In this document: positions 23,512 through 49,800 of the stretch, piece after piece | Position numbering within the stretch: position 1 is the stretch's first letter | How the letters are laid out: each line of letters begins with the position of its first letter | Assembly: GCA_937120475.1 (NCBI GenBank) | Contig: CAKZJV010000009.1 | Span: 1-64,000, forward strand | Reading direction: 5' to 3' | From: an uncultured Cryomorphaceae bacterium | Lineage (GTDB): Bacteria > Bacteroidota > Bacteroidia > Flavobacteriales > Schleiferiaceae | Length of the DNA stretch: 64,000 nucleotides | Made by a program: the position numbers and the translations under genes | The notes under the pieces: generated by a model | Told to the model about the DNA's origin: nothing | The model's database searches: none | The model's input: only the letters and a program-made list of their open reading frames with translations

Positions 23512-24366
23512 TTAATAGACCGCCCTGCTTGAACAAATTTCGTTTCCTTCTTTAAGTATCCCTCTGATCCGTTTATCAGATATTCCTATTTCATTAAGCA
23601 TCTTTGGCTTGTCACAAAGCTCCTTGCAGAGTACTACCATCTTATCAATCAACTGTTGCTTTTCGGACTTGGTAAGCGTAGTGAGGCAGGTGATAGGATG
23701 TAAACCGGACAAATTAATCCGTTCACTTAAACTTCCTTGTTGGGGATAATCCCAGCCTATGAGAATCAAACCGGAACATTTACCATATTGAATGGCATCT
23801 TCGGTGAACCGGGTATTGGTCACCACCCAACCCTGATGAAACTTAGTAGCATGATCTATACGTTTCTGCCATTGCTTTTTTACATCTTCAAACCGGGATT
23901 TTATATAGAGTGGAATTTTTACATCGCACTTATAACCTTGCCGATTATGGAATTTGCACTCTACCATAAAGTGCTTATTATCCTTTTCGGCCTCCACATC
24001 TATTTCGTGAGTCACACAATGGCCCTGAATGATCACACCTACTTTAGTGCGGTATCCCTGGTGTTTGAGAATTTCACCAATGAACTTTTCAAAGGGGTAT
24101 CCTGATGGTCCCAGCTCTAAAATAGCCTGCTTGGTTTTGTACCTTCCTGCGACAGGTTTTGAGTACTTCCTGAGCATGGAAAAGGCCTGACTGTATATTT
24201 TTTTTGTAGACATTCCATCAAATAGCTGCTTCTCAATTTCGCTCACAATCCGATTCATAACAGCTGAACCGGCTCCGGCCCTTTCAAGGGATTTTCTGAG
24301 CTTAGCAGAAGAGAAGGGTACTTTTTCTCCGGAAGCCTTGGTGATAAAAACGGTCTTTTCTGGCAT
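23512..24366 (-). CDS. ATP-cone / PD-(D/E)XK (Mrr-like) fusion protein
   Basis: A 284-residue two-domain protein. Residues 4-90 form an ATP-cone domain (VFITKASGEKVPFSSAKLRK ...), the nucleotide-sensing fold of ribonucleotide reductases and NrdR. Residues 88-215 are a restriction-endonuclease-like fold: GYPFEKFIGEIL (E93), HEIDVEA (D123) and VECK (E137, K139) give the E...D...ExK core of Mrr-type nucleases. The C-terminus (220-284) is helical with LLDCC-like features absent. Such a fusion could cut nucleic acid in response to ATP/dATP level, which fits the nucleotide-metabolism neighbours; this is inference. It has its own upstream palindrome at 24374-24397. Confidence 0.8.
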   Translation of the reverse strand: MPEKTVFITKASGEKVPFSSAKLRKSLERAGAGSAVMNRIVSEIEKQLFDGMSTKKIYSQAFSMLRKYSKPVAGRYKTKQAILELGPSGYPFEKFIGEILKHQGYRTKVGVIIQGHCVTHEIDVEAEKDNKHFMVECKFHNRQGYKCDVKIPLYIKSRFEDVKKQWQKRIDHATKFHQGWVVTNTRFTEDAIQYGKCSGLILIGWDYPQQGSLSERINLSGLHPITCLTTLTKSEKQQLIDKMVVLCKELCDKPKMLNEIGISDKRIRGILKEGNEICSSRAVY

Positions 24367-32289: not shown

Positions 32290-33201
32290 TTATTTTTGAA
32301 ATTTTGTCTTTATTGTATGATGTTTTGCTTGGTGCAATCCACCTTTCCCGGTATCGGACGCTTCATTCAGCTTATCAGAAAGCTTTTTAAGCAAGTCTTT
32401 ATTTTGAAGATGGCTGTTGTCAATGAGCAGTCCTTTGAGGCCATCTTTTGTTTCTATCCCATAGATAACGGATTTGCCTGTTGGGTCTTCTTCTTCGTCA
32501 AAGCGATAAAATTCTGAAATGTTTAAATCGTCAATTTGAAAACTGGCGCACAGGTCTTTGCACTCAATACAATCGTCCTTTCTGTTGAAGTTATAGGTAT
32601 AGCCTTTTTCCCTAAGGCCATCGAGTGCTTCAGGTAAGTTCCTGTAATAGCGGTTCTCATCGCGTATCACTTCTTTGTAATCAGATACTGAAAGACCGGT
32701 AACACGTTTGAATTGGCTGGACAGGTAATGTACTGAACTGTATCCGAGTTTTATGGCAATCTCACTTAAGTTGAGTTCATCGTACTGTAACAGTTCCTTT
32801 ACCCTGTCTATGCGTTTATTGATATAATAGGCCTCTATGGTAAGCCCTTCACTTTTTGAGAAAAGCTTGCTGAGAAAATTGTAGTTTTTGCCAACCTCAT
32901 GCGCCAGAAAATCAGACAACATTGTCTCTTTGGTAGAATTTTCCAAAAGTTCTATATAGTGCTGAATGCCCAGCTTAATCTGTTCCAGCAGGATCTCCTC
33001 TTTATCTTCCAGTAATTCAAATCCGTAGGTATTTAACCTGGCCGCAATGGTAGCTCTGGTAAGGGTGGTGGGGATTTGTACGGTAGCACGTCCAAGCTGT
33101 ATGGTTGAAACAGTGGCCCCAAGGTCTTGAAGCTCGTTTTGTATGACCAGGATGCACCTGGGACATACCATATTCTTAATGTTTAGATTTATCGTTTTCA
33201 T
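32290..33201 (-). CDS. AraC-family regulator with metal-binding N-terminus and extra C-terminal domain
   Basis: A 303-residue predicted transcription factor of three parts. Residues 1-68 are an HMA-like ferredoxin fold with MVCPRC (C13, C16), a likely metal sensor. Residues 78-183 contain the two helix-turn-helix motifs of an AraC DNA-binding domain (LSEIAIKLGYSSVHYLSSQF at 145-164). Residues 187-283 match the standalone 104-residue protein at 38679-38993 (EALDGLREKGYTYNF ... CIEC ... VIYGI ... GLKGLLIDN), including the Cys pair C211/C214. The architecture suggests copper or other metal control of this cluster. Target genes are not known. Confidence 0.85.
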   Translation of the reverse strand: MKTINLNIKNMVCPRCILVIQNELQDLGATVSTIQLGRATVQIPTTLTRATIAARLNTYGFELLEDKEEILLEQIKLGIQHYIELLENSTKETMLSDFLAHEVGKNYNFLSKLFSKSEGLTIEAYYINKRIDRVKELLQYDELNLSEIAIKLGYSSVHYLSSQFKRVTGLSVSDYKEVIRDENRYYRNLPEALDGLREKGYTYNFNRKDDCIECKDLCASFQIDDLNISEFYRFDEEEDPTGKSVIYGIETKDGLKGLLIDNSHLQNKDLLKKLSDKLNEASDTGKGGLHQAKHHTIKTKFQK

Positions 33202-34081: not shown

Positions 34082-34104
34082 ATATTTTCCTAATAGGAAA
34101 ATAT
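34082..34104 (+). promoter_or_regulatory. 23-bp perfect palindromic operator of the S24 repressor
   Basis: Arms of 11 bp (ATATTTTCCTA and its reverse complement) around a single central A at 34093, 30 bp upstream of the repressor start. It is the expected place for autoregulation of the repressor, endonuclease and methylase operon. A box TAGATTTG at 34122-34129 fits the Bacteroidota -7 element but is so close to ATG 34135 that the message would be nearly leaderless. Confidence 0.75.
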
Positions 34105-34134
34105 TTTGTAAAATTGGCATATAGATTTGACCTT

Positions 34135-34785
34135 ATGTCGAAAACTCCAGATCTTAAAGCCATTCGAACCTCGCTAGGCCTCGGGCAACAGTTTATTGCC
34201 GGTGCACTTGGTGTTGAAGTAGCTACTTATAGTAAACTGGAAAGAGGTAAAATTCAATTGACAGTAGAACGGCTTTATAAACTTTCTAAAATTTTTAACC
34301 TAACCCCGGAAGAGATCCTCCATTTTGGATCGAGTCAGGTCTCCAATGGAAAAACAAAGCATGCTGATAATGTCACCTTTGTTCCTGTTGCCGCACAAGC
34401 CGGACTGTTTAACGGCTTTTCTTCAGAGCATTCCACAGATACGACTATTCCTTTTTCCCTTCCAATTTTTTATGAACGAGATCTGTTTCTTATAAATCTG
34501 GAAGGCGATAGTATGTACCCGACTTTCTGTAATGGGGATTACATTTTGGTGAAGCAATTAGACTTTACTAGTAAGAATATTAAATGGGGCGAACCTTATT
34601 TGATCATTACTGATGATGGTCAAGTGGTTAAGCGCATTATGAAATCTCAAGCTAAAAATTCCATCCTGCTAAAATCAGACAATCACCTTTATGAACCCTA
34701 CGAAGTGGAAAACACAAACATTAAATCAATTTGGGAATTAAAGGGCGTGATTTCAAAAAACCTTGCGCCTAGAACGGTTCGATAA
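34135..34785 (+). CDS. XRE-S24 (LexA-like) self-cleaving repressor
   Basis: A 216-residue protein (ATG 34135; a TTG at 34114 is less likely). Residues 5-62 are an XRE helix-turn-helix (LKAIRTSLGLGQQFIAGALG, ERGKIQLTVERLYKL). Residues 82-200 are an S24 peptidase-like domain: possible cleavage site Ala89-Gly90 in PVAAQAG, nucleophile Ser126 in EGDSMYP, and Lys167 in VVKRI. This is the fold of LexA and lambda CI, which are inactivated by RecA-stimulated self-cleavage. It stands 3 bp before the methylase gene, so it likely represses the downstream operon and releases it on DNA damage. SOS control is inference. Confidence 0.88.
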   Translation: MSKTPDLKAIRTSLGLGQQFIAGALGVEVATYSKLERGKIQLTVERLYKLSKIFNLTPEEILHFGSSQVSNGKTKHADNVTFVPVAAQAGLFNGFSSEHSTDTTIPFSLPIFYERDLFLINLEGDSMYPTFCNGDYILVKQLDFTSKNIKWGEPYLIITDDGQVVKRIMKSQAKNSILLKSDNHLYEPYEVENTNIKSIWELKGVISKNLAPRTVR

Positions 34786-34788
34786 CTA

Positions 34789-37700
34789 ATGAAAGAGATG
34801 TCAAAACATAGTGTTCCCCTTTTAGATGAAGTCTATGAAAAACTGGATTATCAATCCGGGGATCTGTTTGATGTAGGTATAAATAGAAGCTCCGTTGGAA
34901 TTGAAAATTATATTTCTAAGGGACAGTGGCTGGATACTTGTTTCTCTATCAATAGCCGAAATCAGTTTCATATTGACAAAATATTCTTTGTCCAGGACAA
35001 CCCTATAATAGTTTTTGTTGATGCCAATACCATAGAGCAGGAGAAGATATTTAATGTTTATAATGAGGTATGGTCTCTAGCTCGTCCCCGTTTGGTTTTT
35101 GTTCAAAACGATTCTGCCATTACGGTATACGACCTGGCCTCAAATCCCGCCAGATCCAATGAAGACTTGACTCCGTTAAGTAAGACTATTAATGAAGCGA
35201 AACAAATTTTAAAAGAGCTTAAACGCTATAGAAGAGAAAGTATTGAATCAGGCACTGTCTTTGGCGATGAACATTTTGATTCTGTTAATAAAAGAGCAGA
35301 CCTCTCACTTATAAATGATTTGAAACAAGCCAGATCGAGACTGTTTGATCATGGTTTAAATGGTGAAAACCTGAAGTATGCGCATGCCCTGATAGGAAGG
35401 TCAATCTTTATCCGCTATTTGGAAGATCGTGGAGTACTGACCAAAGAGTATTTTACAAAGGTGGCTAAAGGCAATAAAAAGTGGTTGAATATCATTGAGA
35501 CCCCCATTGAGGCCACTTTTTACAGAATTGATATGAAGAGCCTGATCTTTCCCCGTATACTGGCCGATAGAGACCTTACCTTTCATTTATTCAAAAAAAT
35601 TGCCGAAGACTTTAACGGGGATACTTTTAATACGGATGAAACCGAGGAGCAAATCGTAAATCAAACGCATTTAAACCTTTTACAAAACTTTCTTATTGGA
35701 GAAGGTAAGGATGCCCAATTACCCCTATTTTTATGGGCCTACCGGTTTGATGTAATTCCAATAGATTTGATCAGTAGTATTTATGAGGAATTTTACCACT
35801 CTGAAAATCTTATCGATTCTAAAACTCAAAAGCTGAAAGATGGAAAAGGCACTCACTACACCCCGTCTTCACTGGTAGAGTTTGTTCTAGCCCAGACGCT
35901 GACATTGGATGTGTTGAAAAAGAGACCCAGGGTTTTGGACCCAGCGTGTGGATCGGGAATTTTTCTGGTTGAATCCTTTAGAAGAATGGTTCGATACGAG
36001 CTGTTTGTGAAGAATAAAAAGGTGCTCGATCTGGAAGAGTTGCTTCATATTCTAAAAACTCAGATTGCTGGTATTGAGATTAATTCCGAAGCGGTTAAAA
36101 TTGCGGCCTTCAGCTTATACCTATCGCTTTTGCATTACCTGAATCCCCCAAGTATTCTCTCCTATGTAAAGAAAGGGGGAAAGCTGCCTTACCTGATCTG
36201 GCACGGACAAAAGAAAGAAAATCACTTTAATATATTGCTGGAAAGCAACTCCTTCGATGAGGATAAAACAGAATTGGTTTTTCAGAGAAACTCTTTTGAC
36301 TTAGTTGTGGGAAATCCACCTTGGGGAAGTCCTGGTACAGGCGATTTGCAAGGAAGGGAAGCATTGAAAAGCATAGAAGAATGGTGCAAAGTAAAGGGTA
36401 TCGAGTTTCCAGACAAAGAACCTTCTCACGCCTTTTTGTTTAGGGCTATTGATTACTTAAAGCCCGGTGGTTTAAGTTCCCTACTGGTTTCAAGCGGTGT
36501 GTTGCTGAAGTTTTCACGTATAAGTAATAATTACAAACAACAACTGCTAAGCCAATCCACATTGAAGAGTGTGGTTAATTTCTCGCATGTAAGGCGTGTG
36601 TTTTTTTCAGGGGCTATTTCGCCATTCGTACTTATACGGTTAGAAAAGAAAGCCCCACACAGTGGCAGTCTGATTGATTATTTATCTCTTAAAAAATCAG
36701 GAATAATAGAGAAAAACAAAATTGTCCTTATCGACAAGAATGACTTTAAGAAAATAAAGTACGAACATACCAAAGTCAATGATATCTGGAAGATTTTCTA
36801 TTGGGGCAATGAGCATGATTTTAATTTAATTAGTTCAATAAGGAGATTTGAACTTTTAAAGGAATACTGTGATCTTGAGAACTGCGCGCAGGGATTTCAA
36901 GAAGCTAATAAATCAAAGAATTCAAATTGGCTTTTGGATTACAAAGAAATACCAATAAAGTACTTTCAGAATAAGTATGGGTCTTTTGACCTTTCAAACA
37001 GAGAAGATCTATTGAAACTGTCCTCGATTCCACCGAAGGTAAAAGTTAGGGGTAAGGCTGCAATGTATGACGGACAAAGGATTCTTATTAAGAGAGGAGT
37101 AGCACAAAAGAATACCAGTCCTAAAGGACAAGTTATAGCCCGAATTGAATCTGACCGCTTTGCCTTCAGGCATTCCATTATTTGCATCAAGCTAAACAGT
37201 AAATCAACTATTGATTATGAGACTACAATCGGTATCATGTGGTCTTCTTTGTTTAGATATTATATGTTCATGACTGCCAGTACCTGGGGCACCTGGAGAG
37301 AGGAAATCCACTTGAATGAGGTTTTAGATTTTCCAATCGCCAATCCTAGCAAAAGTGAAGCAACCCAGATTGGTAAAATTGTTAAGGGCCTTCAGGAAGA
37401 GCACCGGAATGACGATCAGTTCTTTACCCTTAAAGATGAAACAAAGCTGAGGCTTTTAGAAGAAGAACTGGATAACAAGGTATTTGACCTGTACCAGTTG
37501 ACCCCTTTTGAACGAACATTGATAAGAAACCGGTGTAACTACGATATTGACTACTATTACAGAGGTACCAAAAGTTTAGCCAATGAGCCGATCAGAAAAG
37601 AATCGGAACTGGATAGTTACATAGCGAGTTTTCGCAGTCATTGGTCTTTAACACTAGAGCCACATGAGTATTTTGATTCGAGAATCATGATGTCTGCTGA

Positions 37701-37965
37701 TAAATCAATGCTTGGGGTGGTTTTCATGCTTAGGTCCAGTAAGGCGGAAATTACTATTAATTATAAAGACGACCCTAATATTGATGACTTTGAATCACTA
37801 CTCAGTAATAAGGTATCAAGAGATGTGTATACCGAAGGATTGTTCAGGCGTGTTTCGGACGATCAAATAATTATTATAAAGTACAATAAGAAAGGTAATT
37901 GGACAGAAACAGAGGCCAAAACTGATGCGGAGGCAACCCTCCTTCATGCTTTGACGGAACATTAA
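34789..37965 (+). CDS. Large N6-adenine DNA methylase (type IIG/class I-like)
   Basis: A 1058-residue protein. Residues 1-120 form a small alpha/beta domain; 120-350 are helical, like the N-terminal part of HsdM/Eco57I-type enzymes. The methyltransferase core carries motif I DPACGSGIFL (384-393), with KDGKGTHYTPSSLVEFVL just before it and motif IV NPPWG (509-513), marking an N6-adenine methylase. The region from about 650 to 900 is probably the target recognition domain; the C-terminus has a helical RNRCNYDIDYYYRGTK block. No nuclease motif was identified in this polypeptide; the endonuclease is the next gene, 15 bp away. The gene is AT-richer than its neighbours, suggesting transfer. It probably protects or marks host DNA as part of a restriction system. 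Confidence 0.85.
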   Translation: MKEMSKHSVPLLDEVYEKLDYQSGDLFDVGINRSSVGIENYISKGQWLDTCFSINSRNQFHIDKIFFVQDNPIIVFVDANTIEQEKIFNVYNEVWSLARPRLVFVQNDSAITVYDLASNPARSNEDLTPLSKTINEAKQILKELKRYRRESIESGTVFGDEHFDSVNKRADLSLINDLKQARSRLFDHGLNGENLKYAHALIGRSIFIRYLEDRGVLTKEYFTKVAKGNKKWLNIIETPIEATFYRIDMKSLIFPRILADRDLTFHLFKKIAEDFNGDTFNTDETEEQIVNQTHLNLLQNFLIGEGKDAQLPLFLWAYRFDVIPIDLISSIYEEFYHSENLIDSKTQKLKDGKGTHYTPSSLVEFVLAQTLTLDVLKKRPRVLDPACGSGIFLVESFRRMVRYELFVKNKKVLDLEELLHILKTQIAGIEINSEAVKIAAFSLYLSLLHYLNPPSILSYVKKGGKLPYLIWHGQKKENHFNILLESNSFDEDKTELVFQRNSFDLVVGNPPWGSPGTGDLQGREALKSIEEWCKVKGIEFPDKEPSHAFLFRAIDYLKPGGLSSLLVSSGVLLKFSRISNNYKQQLLSQSTLKSVVNFSHVRRVFFSGAISPFVLIRLEKKAPHSGSLIDYLSLKKSGIIEKNKIVLIDKNDFKKIKYEHTKVNDIWKIFYWGNEHDFNLISSIRRFELLKEYCDLENCAQGFQEANKSKNSNWLLDYKEIPIKYFQNKYGSFDLSNREDLLKLSSIPPKVKVRGKAAMYDGQRILIKRGVAQKNTSPKGQVIARIESDRFAFRHSIICIKLNSKSTIDYETTIGIMWSSLFRYYMFMTASTWGTWREEIHLNEVLDFPIANPSKSEATQIGKIVKGLQEEHRNDDQFFTLKDETKLRLLEEELDNKVFDLYQLTPFERTLIRNRCNYDIDYYYRGTKSLANEPIRKESELDSYIASFRSHWSLTLEPHEYFDSRIMMSADKSMLGVVFMLRSSKAEITINYKDDPNIDDFESLLSNKVSRDVYTEGLFRRVSDDQIIIIKYNKKGNWTETEAKTDAEATLLHALTEH

Positions 37966-37980
37966 AATTGGTTTAGGAAG

Positions 37981-38649
37981 ATGTCTCTGCTCAATAGAAA
38001 AAAAGAATTCTGGAAGAAGTTTGAAAATTCAATCATTGAAATCATTGAATTGGCCATTGACCTGTTCAAAGAAAAAGAATCTCTCCCCAGAAAAGAAGAT
38101 GATCTTAACAGAACATTCTTTTCTTGTTTAATAGAGGCCAATTATCTTTTGCAGAAGGAGAACAGGGGACAACCTTCCGCCCCTATGTATGAAGCCAATA
38201 ACCAACCCAAATTTGAAGAAGGCAAACGAACAATTAGAGAATTTAAGAGACCGGATTTTCAGTGGTCAATTATGGATATCTTAGAACCCGATCCTTTGAA
38301 AAGCTCTAAGCAATTTGTCTTGGAATGTAAAAGGTTAGGCTTACCAAATGGGAACTGGGTTTTTAATGAGAACTACGTCAACCACGGTATCAAGCGCTTT
38401 GTGAGTAAAGAACATGGTTATGCGTATGGGGTGGAATCCTCGGCAATGCTGGGGTATGTTCAGGATATGGACATATATAAGATTTTATCCGAAGTCAATG
38501 TCAATATTGAGAGTATCAATCAAAAGAGCTTGAGTGAAACCCAAAAGAAGGACATTACCCTGCACCTGAGTCATATTTTAAAACTTGAGTATAGTGAAGA
38601 TGCTATTAGGTTAATTCATTTATGGATTGACCTGCGTAAGTTTTATTGA
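37981..38649 (+). CDS. PD-(D/E)XK restriction endonuclease partner
   Basis: A 222-residue protein. RPDFQW places Asp92 and FVLECKRLG gives Glu115 and Lys117: a PD...ExK nuclease core, followed by helices. Residues 1-60 are helical and charged. It lies 15 bp after the methylase gene, on the same strand, and is AT-rich like it. Together with the methylase and the S24 repressor it forms a self-contained restriction-modification-like cassette. Recognition sequence and whether both subunits form one complex cannot be told from the sequence. Confidence 0.78.
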   Translation: MSLLNRKKEFWKKFENSIIEIIELAIDLFKEKESLPRKEDDLNRTFFSCLIEANYLLQKENRGQPSAPMYEANNQPKFEEGKRTIREFKRPDFQWSIMDILEPDPLKSSKQFVLECKRLGLPNGNWVFNENYVNHGIKRFVSKEHGYAYGVESSAMLGYVQDMDIYKILSEVNVNIESINQKSLSETQKKDITLHLSHILKLEYSEDAIRLIHLWIDLRKFY

Positions 38650-38678: not shown

Positions 38679-38993
38679 TTAAGCAGAACCTCCCCGGCTT
38701 ACCTTTAGTTTGGCGACCATGGCATCAGAAAGGGCTTCAGCATATACGCCATAGGCATCTACAAGCACTCCTTTTAAATCTTTTCCGGATTGAATGGCAT
38801 ACACAATAGAATTGTCATCGGGGCTGCTCATCCCCTCGAAGCGATAGGTCTCTTTGATCTCAAAATCTTCAGGGTGCAGTTCCAGTTTATAAGTAGGACA
38901 CTCAATGCAGTGGGGCTTCAGGTTAAAATCGAGGGTATAACCTCTTTTCTTGAGGTCATTCAAGGCTTCGGAAAGTGTATCGTAACTTTTCAT
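38679..38993 (-). CDS. Small protein homologous to the AraC C-terminal domain
   Basis: A 104-residue protein that aligns with residues 187-283 of the AraC-type regulator at 32290-33201 (shared EAL, L..(R/K)GYT, F N, CIEC, YRF, (I/V)VY/IYAI, LKG(V/L)L(V/I)D). C29 and C32 form a likely metal or disulphide pair. Bacteroidota proteins of this kind are commonly labelled phosphoribosylpyrophosphate synthetase-like, but there is no PRPP loop here, so that label is doubtful. It may be a small metal- or ligand-binding partner of the regulator. Confidence 0.7.
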   Translation of the reverse strand: MKSYDTLSEALNDLKKRGYTLDFNLKPHCIECPTYKLELHPEDFEIKETYRFEGMSSPDDNSIVYAIQSGKDLKGVLVDAYGVYAEALSDAMVAKLKVSRGGSA

Positions 38994-47887: not shown

Positions 47888-48019
47888 TTAAAGATTAAAC
47901 AGTTGAATCAGGACTACGCCAACTACCAAAAGGGTTACAACTCCCCAGACAATGCGATTTGTCCATATTTTTAATTTAGAGGGGGTATTCAAGCCCCCTG
48001 TTTTACAACATTCTTTCAT
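47888..48019 (-). CDS. 43-residue single-TM protein coupled to CusB
   Basis: A small gene: MKECCKTGGLNTPSKLKIWT, then a hydrophobic helix (VWGVVTLLVVGVVLIQLF), ending at TAA 47890-47888. Its ATG overlaps the TGA stop of cusB (ATGA), a classic sign of translational coupling and the main evidence that it is real. The N-terminal CC pair could bind copper. Function unknown; it may be a small accessory subunit of the efflux pump. Confidence 0.7.
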   Translation of the reverse strand: MKECCKTGGLNTPSKLKIWTNRIVWGVVTLLVVGVVLIQLFNL

Positions 48020-49800
48020 TTTATCGTATCGGTTATTTCTCCACAGGTGAGCATGGCTTCACCGAAGTAGGGGTTTTTGATCTCGGCTTTCGTACTGAGC
48101 CAGTCTGCTCCTTTATTGCTATCGGCCATTGGGCAGTGCTGCACATAGAGCGGTTGATCCATTGGGTTAAAAGCTTTGGTCAAGACAATCATTCCATCGG
48201 ATACCTGCTGAAAGGCCTGGCGCACTTCTTCCAGATTTTTGAAGTGTTCTAAGTGCTGTAAGGCGTTTTTTAAGTTGCTGTTGTGCTCCATCCAGGCGTT
48301 GTGCGCTGCTCCTTTAAAAAGGGACATATCTACCTTGCTTATGGCTTCCTTTAACTGGCTGCCATACTGTTTTGCCTCGGCCAACTGATCGGCTACCAGG
48401 GCATTTTTGAAATCCAGGTATGCAGCATAAAGCGGTTGCAGGGCACTTTTAGCTTTTTGATCAATGGTGAACGATTGTATCACTTTTGGCTTTACAGGAC
48501 TTGCTGTGGATGGCATTTTACCATCATGATTATGCCCGGTCATGGCAGGGCCACCTTCCGGGTTCATCATACTGGGCTTGCCCGCCAGTTGGGCGGCTGC
48601 ATCTATGCTGAAGGTGCCGTGTACAGCAATTTCCTCGCCTGGTTCCAATCCTTCTTTCACAATAAAACCATCCCCTAGCTCGGGGCCCAGTACTACCTCC
48701 CGCATCATAAAGTGGGTACCCTTACCGGAAGGTGTTTTTATGTAAACCACCGAACGTTCACCCGTCCACATCACAGCCGTTTTGGGTACTACCAGCGTGT
48801 TCGCCTTATTTTCCAATTCTGCCTGTACTACTCCACTGGCAAACATTTCTGGTTTGAGCACATTGCCTTTATTGTTTACTTCTACCCGGGCTTTGGCCAC
48901 CCTTGTTTTCGGGTCAATAACGGGGTCTAAAAAGGTGATGATACCGCTAAACTGCTCACCGGGCAGGGAGGCTACGGTAAAGCGTACTTTATCACCTTTT
49001 TTTATCCAAGCCACGTCCGATTCATACACATCAAACAGCACCCATACTTTTGATAAATCGGCAATTTCATAAATCGGCTCTCCTTTACGAACGTAGTCAC
49101 CCAGGTTTACTTTTTTGCTGAGCACAAAACCGGAGACATCGGCTACAATGGGAAACTGTTCTTTGGCTTCTCCGCCTTCCAGTATCTGGTCGATCTGTGC
49201 CTGGGATAGCTTCCAGTTTTTGAGTTTTTCCTGTGCCGATCTGTACAATGCCGGTTGGGTGTCTTTGATCTTTCGGGCTTCAAAAAGCTCTTCCTGGGCT
49301 GTAACCAGTTCGGGAGAATAGAGGGAAGCGATCACCTGGCCTTTGCGCACATATTCTCCGGTAAAGTTAACTTGCAATTGCTCTATCCTTCCCGGTATAT
49401 GACTGGTTTGGGAAAATACCAGGCGTTCATCTTCCTGTACTTTTCCATTAAGCCGAAGGCTTTTTACCGGGGCGCTAGTGCCTACGATAGCCGTACTTAC
49501 ACTGGCCAATTGCATGGCGGTGGGCGACATGGATATGGCCATGGGGTCAAGCTCCTGGTTATCACCATTTTCCAGAGGGATGAGATCCATGCCACAAATG
49601 GGGCAATCTCCCGGCTCATTTTGCCTGATCTGCGGGTGCATGGAGCAGGTCCATATAGTTTCACCCGCTATTTCAGTGGTGTGCTGGTGATCTTCTTCCA
49701 TTTTTTGACCAGAAGAACCTCCAAAAATCAGCCACCCCAGCAACAGACCAGTAATCAGTGTGAGCAGCATAACGATAATTGTTTTTCTATTGATTTTCAT
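48016..49800 (-). CDS. cusB: CusB-type RND membrane-fusion protein with C-terminal DUF3347
   Basis: A 594-residue periplasmic adaptor of a heavy-metal RND pump. A signal/anchor (residues 8-28) is followed by the heavy-metal-binding YHS-like motif TCSMHPQIRQNEPGDCPICG (51-70; C52, H55, C66, C69). The central adaptor region has the usual barrel-sandwich hybrid and beta-barrel (VRKGQVIASLYSPEL, NLGDYVRKGEPIYEIADLSK). Residues of about 455-594 are a DUF3347 domain ending HCPMADSNKGADWLS ... NPYFGEAMLTCG. It links CusA to the TolC-like channel and may pass copper to the pump. cusC is just upstream (1 bp), the 43-residue gene overlaps its end. Confidence 0.92.
   Translation of the reverse strand: MKINRKTIIVMLLTLITGLLLGWLIFGGSSGQKMEEDHQHTTEIAGETIWTCSMHPQIRQNEPGDCPICGMDLIPLENGDNQELDPMAISMSPTAMQLASVSTAIVGTSAPVKSLRLNGKVQEDERLVFSQTSHIPGRIEQLQVNFTGEYVRKGQVIASLYSPELVTAQEELFEARKIKDTQPALYRSAQEKLKNWKLSQAQIDQILEGGEAKEQFPIVADVSGFVLSKKVNLGDYVRKGEPIYEIADLSKVWVLFDVYESDVAWIKKGDKVRFTVASLPGEQFSGIITFLDPVIDPKTRVAKARVEVNNKGNVLKPEMFASGVVQAELENKANTLVVPKTAVMWTGERSVVYIKTPSGKGTHFMMREVVLGPELGDGFIVKEGLEPGEEIAVHGTFSIDAAAQLAGKPSMMNPEGGPAMTGHNHDGKMPSTASPVKPKVIQSFTIDQKAKSALQPLYAAYLDFKNALVADQLAEAKQYGSQLKEAISKVDMSLFKGAAHNAWMEHNSNLKNALQHLEHFKNLEEVRQAFQQVSDGMIVLTKAFNPMDQPLYVQHCPMADSNKGADWLSTKAEIKNPYFGEAMLTCGEITDTIK

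What the first reader, a model, noticed from the sequence alone, without database searches (positions are those of the whole stretch)
34082..38649. S24-repressor-controlled restriction cassette: repressor, 1058-residue N6 methylase and separate PD-(D/E)XK nuclease
A LexA-like repressor (Ser126/Lys167 dyad, Ala89-Gly90 cleavage-like site) with a perfect 23-bp operator precedes, by 3 bp, a methylase (DPACGSG, NPPWG) and, 15 bp further, a nuclease (PD...ExK). All three lie on one strand in AT-richer DNA between unrelated genes. Type II restriction systems often use small C proteins as controllers; a self-cleaving S24 controller would tie the weapon to DNA damage or phage attack. This arrangement is not one of the standard named types as far as I know, though large IIG-like methylases are known. 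Seen: motifs, spacing, operator. Inference: SOS coupling and defence role.
Basis: partly seen in the sequence, partly recalled or inferred. Interest (0 to 1): 0.85.

Follow-up and report, generated by a model that had tools for sequence, protein, structure and literature searches.

The report
LexA-type switch on restriction gene pair
A three-gene bacterial cassette pairs a DNA-marking enzyme and a small DNA-cutting enzyme with a LexA-like repressor of the kind that can cut itself when DNA is damaged; because the same enzyme pair is found behind such repressors in several unrelated bacteria, this restriction weapon may be switched on by DNA damage or phage attack.

Summary
The cassette is real and as described, except that the S24 lysine is K166, not K167. 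An XRE-S24 repressor (216 aa) lies under a perfect 23-bp palindrome. It precedes by 3 bp a 1058-aa N6-adenine methylase with built-in recognition region, which precedes by 15 bp a 222-aa PD-(D/E)XK nuclease. The methylase-nuclease pair is widespread: in 115 of 121 loci gathered by similarity the nuclease directly follows the methylase, in many phyla. The S24 gene is not a fixed part: it lies directly upstream in 6 distinct loci of the 121, window included. A seventh, a Nitrospirae MAG, has a lexA-like gene 634 bp upstream and dinB 22 bp downstream of the pair. On a quick methylase tree the seven need 6 changes, so LexA/S24 controllers were probably recruited repeatedly. Five aligned cassette repressors keep the Ser/Lys dyad; all seven show Ala-Gly near the expected cleavage place (partly by eye). 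The window operator has no close copy in its genome, so the repressor looks private. Best reading: a split, Type IIG-like restriction pair under a private autoregulatory S24 repressor, probably RecA-inducible. Induction, cleavage and restriction are inferred, not shown.

The parts
34082..34104 (.). perfect 23-bp palindrome, likely operator of the repressor
   Evidence: its 19-bp core has no other place with up to 2 mismatches in the genome
34063..34081 (.). possible second, degenerate operator abutting the first (14 of 19 bases as in 34084-34102)
   Evidence: read by eye; not tested against chance
34135..34785 (+). XRE (HTH_3) - Peptidase_S24 repressor, 216 aa; Ser126/Lys166 dyad, Ala89-Gly90; in-frame TTG start at 34114 possible
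34789..37965 (+). 1058-aa N6-adenine DNA methylase with recognition region (Type IIG/MmeI/BrxX-like); no conserved D..(D/E)xK outside the methylase core; extra C-terminal domain
37981..38649 (+). 222-aa PD-(D/E)XK nuclease (D92, E115-x-K117)

Best explanation
The cassette is a two-gene restriction-modification system under a private, autoregulatory LexA/CI-type switch. The methylase carries its own target-recognition region, like a Type IIG or MmeI-type enzyme, but no nuclease motif is conserved in its chain; cutting is done by the separate 222-aa PD-(D/E)XK protein, perhaps recruited by the methylase (inferred). In the resting cell a repressor dimer on the 23-bp palindrome holds down one promoter from which repressor, methylase and nuclease are read together (gene order and spacing seen; transcription inferred). 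When single-stranded DNA and active RecA build up, in DNA damage or phage replication, the repressor cuts itself at Ala89-Gly90 and methylase plus nuclease rise together (inferred from the LexA/CI family, not shown).
For: Genes, motifs, operator. M-R pair: nuclease directly after methylase in 115 of 121 loci, on plasmids and in many phyla. Nuclease model pLDDT 96.6, best VIA-align rows OkrAI Z 8.0, BstYI 7.3, McrC 6.5; 4 of 83 members hit PDDEXK_9. Methylase model pLDDT 87.3 matches CamA Z 26.0, MmeI 22.2, BrxX 21.6, DrdV 20.6. S24/LexA genes directly upstream in 6 distinct loci; only 2 other S24 genes in 1.07 Mb of flank; 6 changes forced on the tree. Row lexA-like, abrB-like, M, R, dinB in L070. 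Palindromes beyond chance also before the L143 and L077 repressors (3 and 5 of 1000).
Against: 114 of the 121 loci have no S24 gene directly upstream, so damage control is not intrinsic to the pair. Methylase and nuclease would be induced together, which does not obviously favour attack. The Ser/Lys dyad is near universal in the S24 paralogues looked at. No palindrome beyond chance was found for L171 (262 of 1000) and L070 (988 of 1000), L075 is weak (115) and L063 moderate (36). The nuclease is on average less conserved (34.1% identity) than every methylase part, the recognition region included (36.9%), among 210 pairs, which does not fit a generic nuclease that merely borrows specificity. 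Its closest fold matches have only middling Z. Nothing shows expression, cleavage, methylation or restriction. Many loci are MAGs.
Confidence: 0.58

Rival explanations
1. Plain autorepressor for establishment control. The S24 protein acts like a C protein or prophage repressor: on entry into a new cell the promoter is open until repressor accumulates, giving a burst of methylase and nuclease, then low steady expression. The S24 domain serves dimerisation only, and no self-cleavage occurs in life.
For: The palindrome lies just upstream of the repressor gene; other loci of the family carry other small, probably DNA-binding proteins in the same slot (the labels RHH-, DeoR-, MerR- and XRE-like are mine by eye; Pfam gave only sub-threshold matches or none for those scanned), so any autorepressor may do.
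Against: S24/LexA proteins with Ala-Gly and dyad stand in that slot on separate branches of the tree, one with dinB in the same gene row; a simple repressor would not need the peptidase.
Confidence: 0.3
2. Addiction or mobile-element module rather than host defence: the pair kills cells that lose it, and the S24 gene is a leftover of a prophage or integrative element.
For: Relatives lie on plasmids and in virus-classed contigs, the L143 copy beside tail-like genes (by eye); lower G+C of the cassette; no match to the nuclease in the two congeners searched.
Against: By eye no integrase or phage gene among the ORFs next to the window cassette (not all were scanned by family; the IS1-like transposase found is 31 kb away). 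No match to the nuclease in 50,697 phage records.
Confidence: 0.12
3. The nuclease is an orthodox, self-specific Type II restriction enzyme and the methylase its independent partner (may hold together with the best explanation's switch).
For: Nuclease size and closest folds are those of BstYI and OkrAI. It diverges faster than the methylase: its identity exceeds that of the methylase core in 1 of 210 pairs and that of the recognition region in 68 of 210.
Against: Orthodox Type II nucleases are usually hard to align between specificities (recalled), whereas this one aligns over 83 loci in many phyla; its divergence follows the methylase C-terminal domain (r 0.79) more than the recognition region (r 0.51) (not corrected for kinship).
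Confidence: 0.35

Closest known systems
Type IIG / IIL enzymes (MmeI, DrdV, BpuSI)
   Same: one chain with helical region, N6 methylase and target recognition; PADLOC IIG model PDLC03603 4.3e-54; MmeI Z 22.2 and DrdV Z 20.6, BpuSI in the Foldseek list
   Different: those carry an active nuclease in the same chain (recalled); here no D..(D/E)xK is conserved outside the methylase core and the nuclease is a separate gene
Type II systems with C (controller) proteins
   Same: operon with regulator, methylase, nuclease; autoregulation likely
   Different: C proteins are HTH activator/repressors (PMC12707154, passages seen; their small size is recalled); here a 216-aa XRE-S24 protein
LexA / CI / S24 repressors
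   Same: HTH plus S24 domain, Ser/Lys dyad, Ala-Gly site, palindromic operator
   Different: operator found only at one restriction cassette; not shown to be cleaved
DNA-damage controllers of immune operons: CapW/BrxR, CapH+CapP, CapK+CapS
   Same: placed directly upstream of immune operons and reported to open them on DNA damage or ssDNA (PMC13373217, passages seen)
   Different: those use ssDNA binding by a WYL repressor, a separate protease, or a kinase; the words S24 and LexA do not occur in that paper's main text
BREX PglX/BrxX
   Same: methylase fold, Z 21.6
   Different: no BREX partner seen next to the cassette; a nuclease partner instead

Membership tests
Type II restriction-modification (in the wide sense) | methylase gene and nuclease gene adjacent | tested here: met
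   115 of 121 loci
Type II restriction-modification (in the wide sense) | nuclease cuts unmodified DNA at the methylase's site | not testable with these tools
   needs biochemistry
Type IIG / IIL | methylase with recognition domain in one chain | tested here: met
Type IIG / IIL | active nuclease domain in the same chain | tested here: not met
   over 50 members no lysine is conserved (40 of 50 or more) in residues 1-330, and K668 and K1031 have no conserved acidic partner two residues before; by sequence only, the fold of the N-terminal domain was not settled
C-protein controlled Type II | small HTH controller without further domain | tested here: not met
   XRE plus S24, 216 aa
LexA/S24 self-cleaving repressors | HTH plus Peptidase_S24, Ser/Lys dyad | tested here: met
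LexA/S24 self-cleaving repressors | Ala-Gly (or Cys-Gly) cleavage site | tested here: met
   Ala89-Gly90
LexA/S24 self-cleaving repressors | RecA-stimulated self-cleavage | not testable with these tools
   needs in vitro assay
CapW / CapH+CapP / CapK+CapS controllers | WYL, HTH plus separate protease, or kinase plus STAS repressor | tested here: not met
   above cut-off only HTH_3, S24 and HTH_26 (at its cut-off) in the repressor
BREX | PglZ and BrxC partners next to the methylase | tested here: not met
   nearest neighbours are small or unrelated and on the other strand; the rest of the genome was not searched for BREX genes

The most novel reading that the evidence does not exclude
A class of SOS-inducible restriction: a widespread split methylase-nuclease pair that has repeatedly captured private LexA/CI-type self-cleaving repressors, so that the restriction weapon is armed by RecA activation. 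[quoted passage not shown]
Probability: 0.45. Interest if true: 0.82.

Novelty: new variant of a known kind. Interest (0 to 1): 0.66.

Why it matters
Type I systems are reported to be turned down after DNA damage by proteolysis (restriction alleviation; PMC12255303, passage seen). A restriction pair opened by a LexA-type switch would do the reverse, and its presence in several unrelated hosts makes the logic testable. The partner nuclease has no dedicated model in the libraries scanned, so some methylases filed as Type IIG may be half of a two-gene system.

Tried and rejected
Foldseek against PDB for the nuclease gave only noise (mostly PTP1B rows, no E below 0.001); the second look with VIA-align put restriction enzymes first, but Z is 8.0 at most, a middling value, and unrelated rows (Rep15, Z 5.2) stand among them. 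A profile of the nuclease family found no PDB sequence. hhalign of the methylase N- and C-terminal parts against the nuclease gave nothing (probability below 1%), so I do not claim that the N-terminal domain is a dead copy of this nuclease. The first genome-contig scan with the single protein found nothing. In the congener G546 matches to the flanks lie on several contigs, so no clean empty site could be shown. The operator core does not recur in the genome: 2 other places, with 3 mismatches, against 7 for the control pattern. The L077 palindrome has no other place with fewer than 3 mismatches in its genome, but 14 places with 3 against 5 for the control, so a wider regulon there is not excluded. 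A BREX assignment was rejected (NCBIfam BREX models far below cut-off). My first palindrome statistic used a faulty routine and was replaced. A motif-only scan for S24, strict by design, found four of the six upstream genes, missed L063, L075 and L070, and gave one doubtful hit 3 kb away (L130). A scan held a wrong short piece for L089, so that gene stays unclassified; the 158-aa protein of L147 had no Pfam family.

Rows left out: of 123 loci examined, L164 and L172 had no methylase in view, leaving 121. The six without linked nuclease are L087, L146, L150, L152, L153, L173 (L087 and L146 end at the contig end; L173's nuclease is broken by a stop). Near-copies (L144 of L143, L153 of L152, L030 of L029, L032 of L031) count inside the 121; the tree (106 rows) leaves these four and methylases under 930 aa out. 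The S24 profile was trained partly on cassette repressors, and the window was chosen for its S24 gene: without it 5 of 7 S24 genes lie in the slot. The rough odds (7e-5 and 4e-4) rest on a guessed slot share of 0.12 and are not used as evidence.

Full report
Observation. The three ORFs, spacings and motifs are in the sequence as described. The repressor most likely starts at ATG 34135; then the dyad is Ser126 and Lys166 and the cleavage-like pair Ala89-Gly90. The perfect palindrome 34082-34104 is beyond chance (1 of 3000 and 0 of 1000 simulations), and its core has no other place with up to 2 mismatches in the 3.65-Mb genome. The genome has three further PF00717 hits; one, an open frame of 162 aa at C9:106311, I take for UmuD-like (my label).

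The restriction pair. The methylase has N6_Mtase and Eco57I domains and matches PADLOC's Type IIG model PDLC03603 over residues 64-913 (4.3e-54). Its model (pLDDT 87.3) aligns with CamA (Z 26.0, residues 323-904), MmeI (22.2, 169-921), BrxX (21.6) and DrdV (20.6), so a target-recognition region is in the same chain. Over 50 members no D..(D/E)xK is conserved in residues 1-330 or 661-1058; position 63 is acidic in 42 of 50. The window nuclease has no hit in Pfam, PADLOC or NCBIfam (E up to 1) or PHROGs (E up to 0.01). Of 83 members (window included) 4 hit PDDEXK_9, one hits DUF327, and four PADLOC models match one member each. K117 and H213 are invariant over the 83, E39, D92, E115, Y132, G136, Y159 nearly so. 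Its model (pLDDT 96.6) is closest to OkrAI (Z 8.0), BstYI (7.3) and McrC (6.5).

The pair elsewhere. These gave 121 loci with a methylase, window included; the nuclease follows within -120 to 150 bp in 115. Origins named include Bacteroidota, Chloroflexota, Planctomycetota, Myxococcota, Thermodesulfobacteriota, Nitrospirota, Bacillota, Pseudomonadota, Actinomycetota, Acidobacteriota, Verrucomicrobiota, Campylobacterota, Cyanobacteriota and archaea (Methanobacteriota). Among 210 pairs of 21 close members the nuclease's divergence follows the methylase C-terminal domain best (r 0.79) and the recognition region least (r 0.51); but its mean identity (34.1%) is below that of every methylase part (recognition region 36.9, C-terminal part 36.4, N-terminal 40.5, core 47.4) (not corrected for kinship; domain borders are mine). 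The first fact hints that the nuclease docks on the methylase C-terminus; the second leaves open that it reads DNA itself.

The controller. Upstream genes differ: by eye RHH-like, MerR-like, DeoR-like, XRE-like or none; Pfam supports few of these labels (sub-threshold or no match for those scanned), the L070 AbrB-like gene being supported (MazE_antitoxin 7.4e-08). In 6 distinct loci the gene directly upstream, same strand, is an S24 protein: window (gap 3), L063 Cytophagales MAG (57% identical, gap 3), L143 virus-classed contig (overlap 4), L075 Desulfobacteraceae (Phage_CI_repr plus S24, gap 101), L077 Deltaproteobacteria MAG (LexA_DNA_bind plus S24, gap 58), L171 in genome G186 (gap 24). Only two other S24 genes lie in 1.07 Mb of flanks. 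One is in L070 (Nitrospirae MAG): a LexA-like gene heads a same-strand row lexA-like, small ORF (by eye), abrB-like, methylase, nuclease and, 22 bp on, dinB (Pfam IMS 7.8e-50); its LexA DNA-binding match is below Pfam's cut-off (21.3 against 23.7 bits) and no palindrome stands out before it. On a quick tree of 106 methylases (SH-aLRT support, some long branches flagged) the seven S24/LexA rows need 6 changes, all forced by starred branches; shuffled labels need 6.9 on average and 64 of 500 shuffles are as low. So the label is scattered, which fits repeated recruitment; gains and losses cannot be told apart.

The five repressors aligned keep the dyad (L077's Ala-Gly is misaligned there; it reads VTAGV). 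L171 and L070 show GDSM, a downstream lysine and Ala-Gly by eye. Among 30 S24 rows with a letter at that place (window included) the residue before Gly is Met in 17 and Ala in 12; the lysine at position 166 is kept in 30 of 30. Palindromes lie just before the repressors of the window, L063, L075, L143 and L077; in simulation of the upstream 70 bp (for L143 with 40 bp of the ORF added) the window (0 of 1000), L143 (3), L077 (5) and less so L063 (36) stand out, L075 (115), L171 (262) and L070 (988) do not. The L077 site contains GTAC-N4-GTAC, which recalls LexA2 boxes (from memory). That genome holds a second S24 protein; the site has no other place with fewer than 3 mismatches, though places with 3 exceed the control, 14 to 5.

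Mechanism. Shown: gene order, domains, motifs, palindrome, linkage, S24/LexA placement on separate branches. Inferred: joint transcription, repression, RecA-stimulated cleavage, induction, methylation, cutting, defence. My own estimates, not results: about 0.9 that this is a restriction-modification pair, 0.85 that the S24 protein represses it, 0.5-0.6 that damage relieves it.

Literature. Searches. Among the listed papers (titles and starts of abstracts seen) I saw none that describes an S24 or LexA-type gene dedicated to a restriction-modification pair; 'S24 family peptidase' with 'restriction-modification' gave 0 papers. Only open-licence papers are held, so this is weak evidence. Passages seen: PMC12707154 (C proteins; 'LexA' and 'S24' do not occur in the main text), PMC3874152 (LexA named for the SOS response and symE), PMC12839542 (BREX; standalone PD-(D/E)XK nucleases occur near BREX loci), PMC12255303 (outline, abstract, passages), PMC13373217.

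Verdict. New variant of a known kind: a split Type IIG-like pair, widespread, with LexA/S24 control found on separate branches. Interest 0.66.

Noticed in passing
L070 4773-11271: Same-strand row lexA-like, small ORF, abrB-like, methylase, nuclease, dinB in a Nitrospirae MAG: a restriction pair inside what looks like an SOS operon.
   Followed up: partly
window 23512-24366 (-): 284-aa protein with ATP-cone and Mrr_cat restriction-endonuclease domains plus AF1548-like C-terminus, near a beta-CASP metallo-hydrolase, PRPP synthetase, PPK2 and phosphofructokinase genes.
   Followed up: no
window 32290-33201 (-) and 38679-38993 (-): Genes on either side of the cassette share a similar stretch by eye: the AraC-type regulator carries at its C-terminus what the 104-aa protein is on its own.
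   Followed up: no
L150, L152, L153: Virus-classed contigs carry a relative of the methylase without a nuclease match; L150 has by eye a Dam-like ORF directly upstream. Possibly protective methylases of phages.
   Followed up: no
L143 / L144: The cassette in a 59.7-kb virus-classed contig lies next to tail- or baseplate-like genes (by eye); an inverted repeat overlaps the annotated repressor start.
   Followed up: no
G000:C9:106311-106658: S24 protein in an open frame of 162 aa, UmuD-like in size, about 70 kb from the cassette.
   Followed up: no
window 41563-63993: By eye a region rich in metal-handling genes; the protein at 48016-49800 has CusB/HlyD and heavy-metal-binding domains.
   Followed up: no
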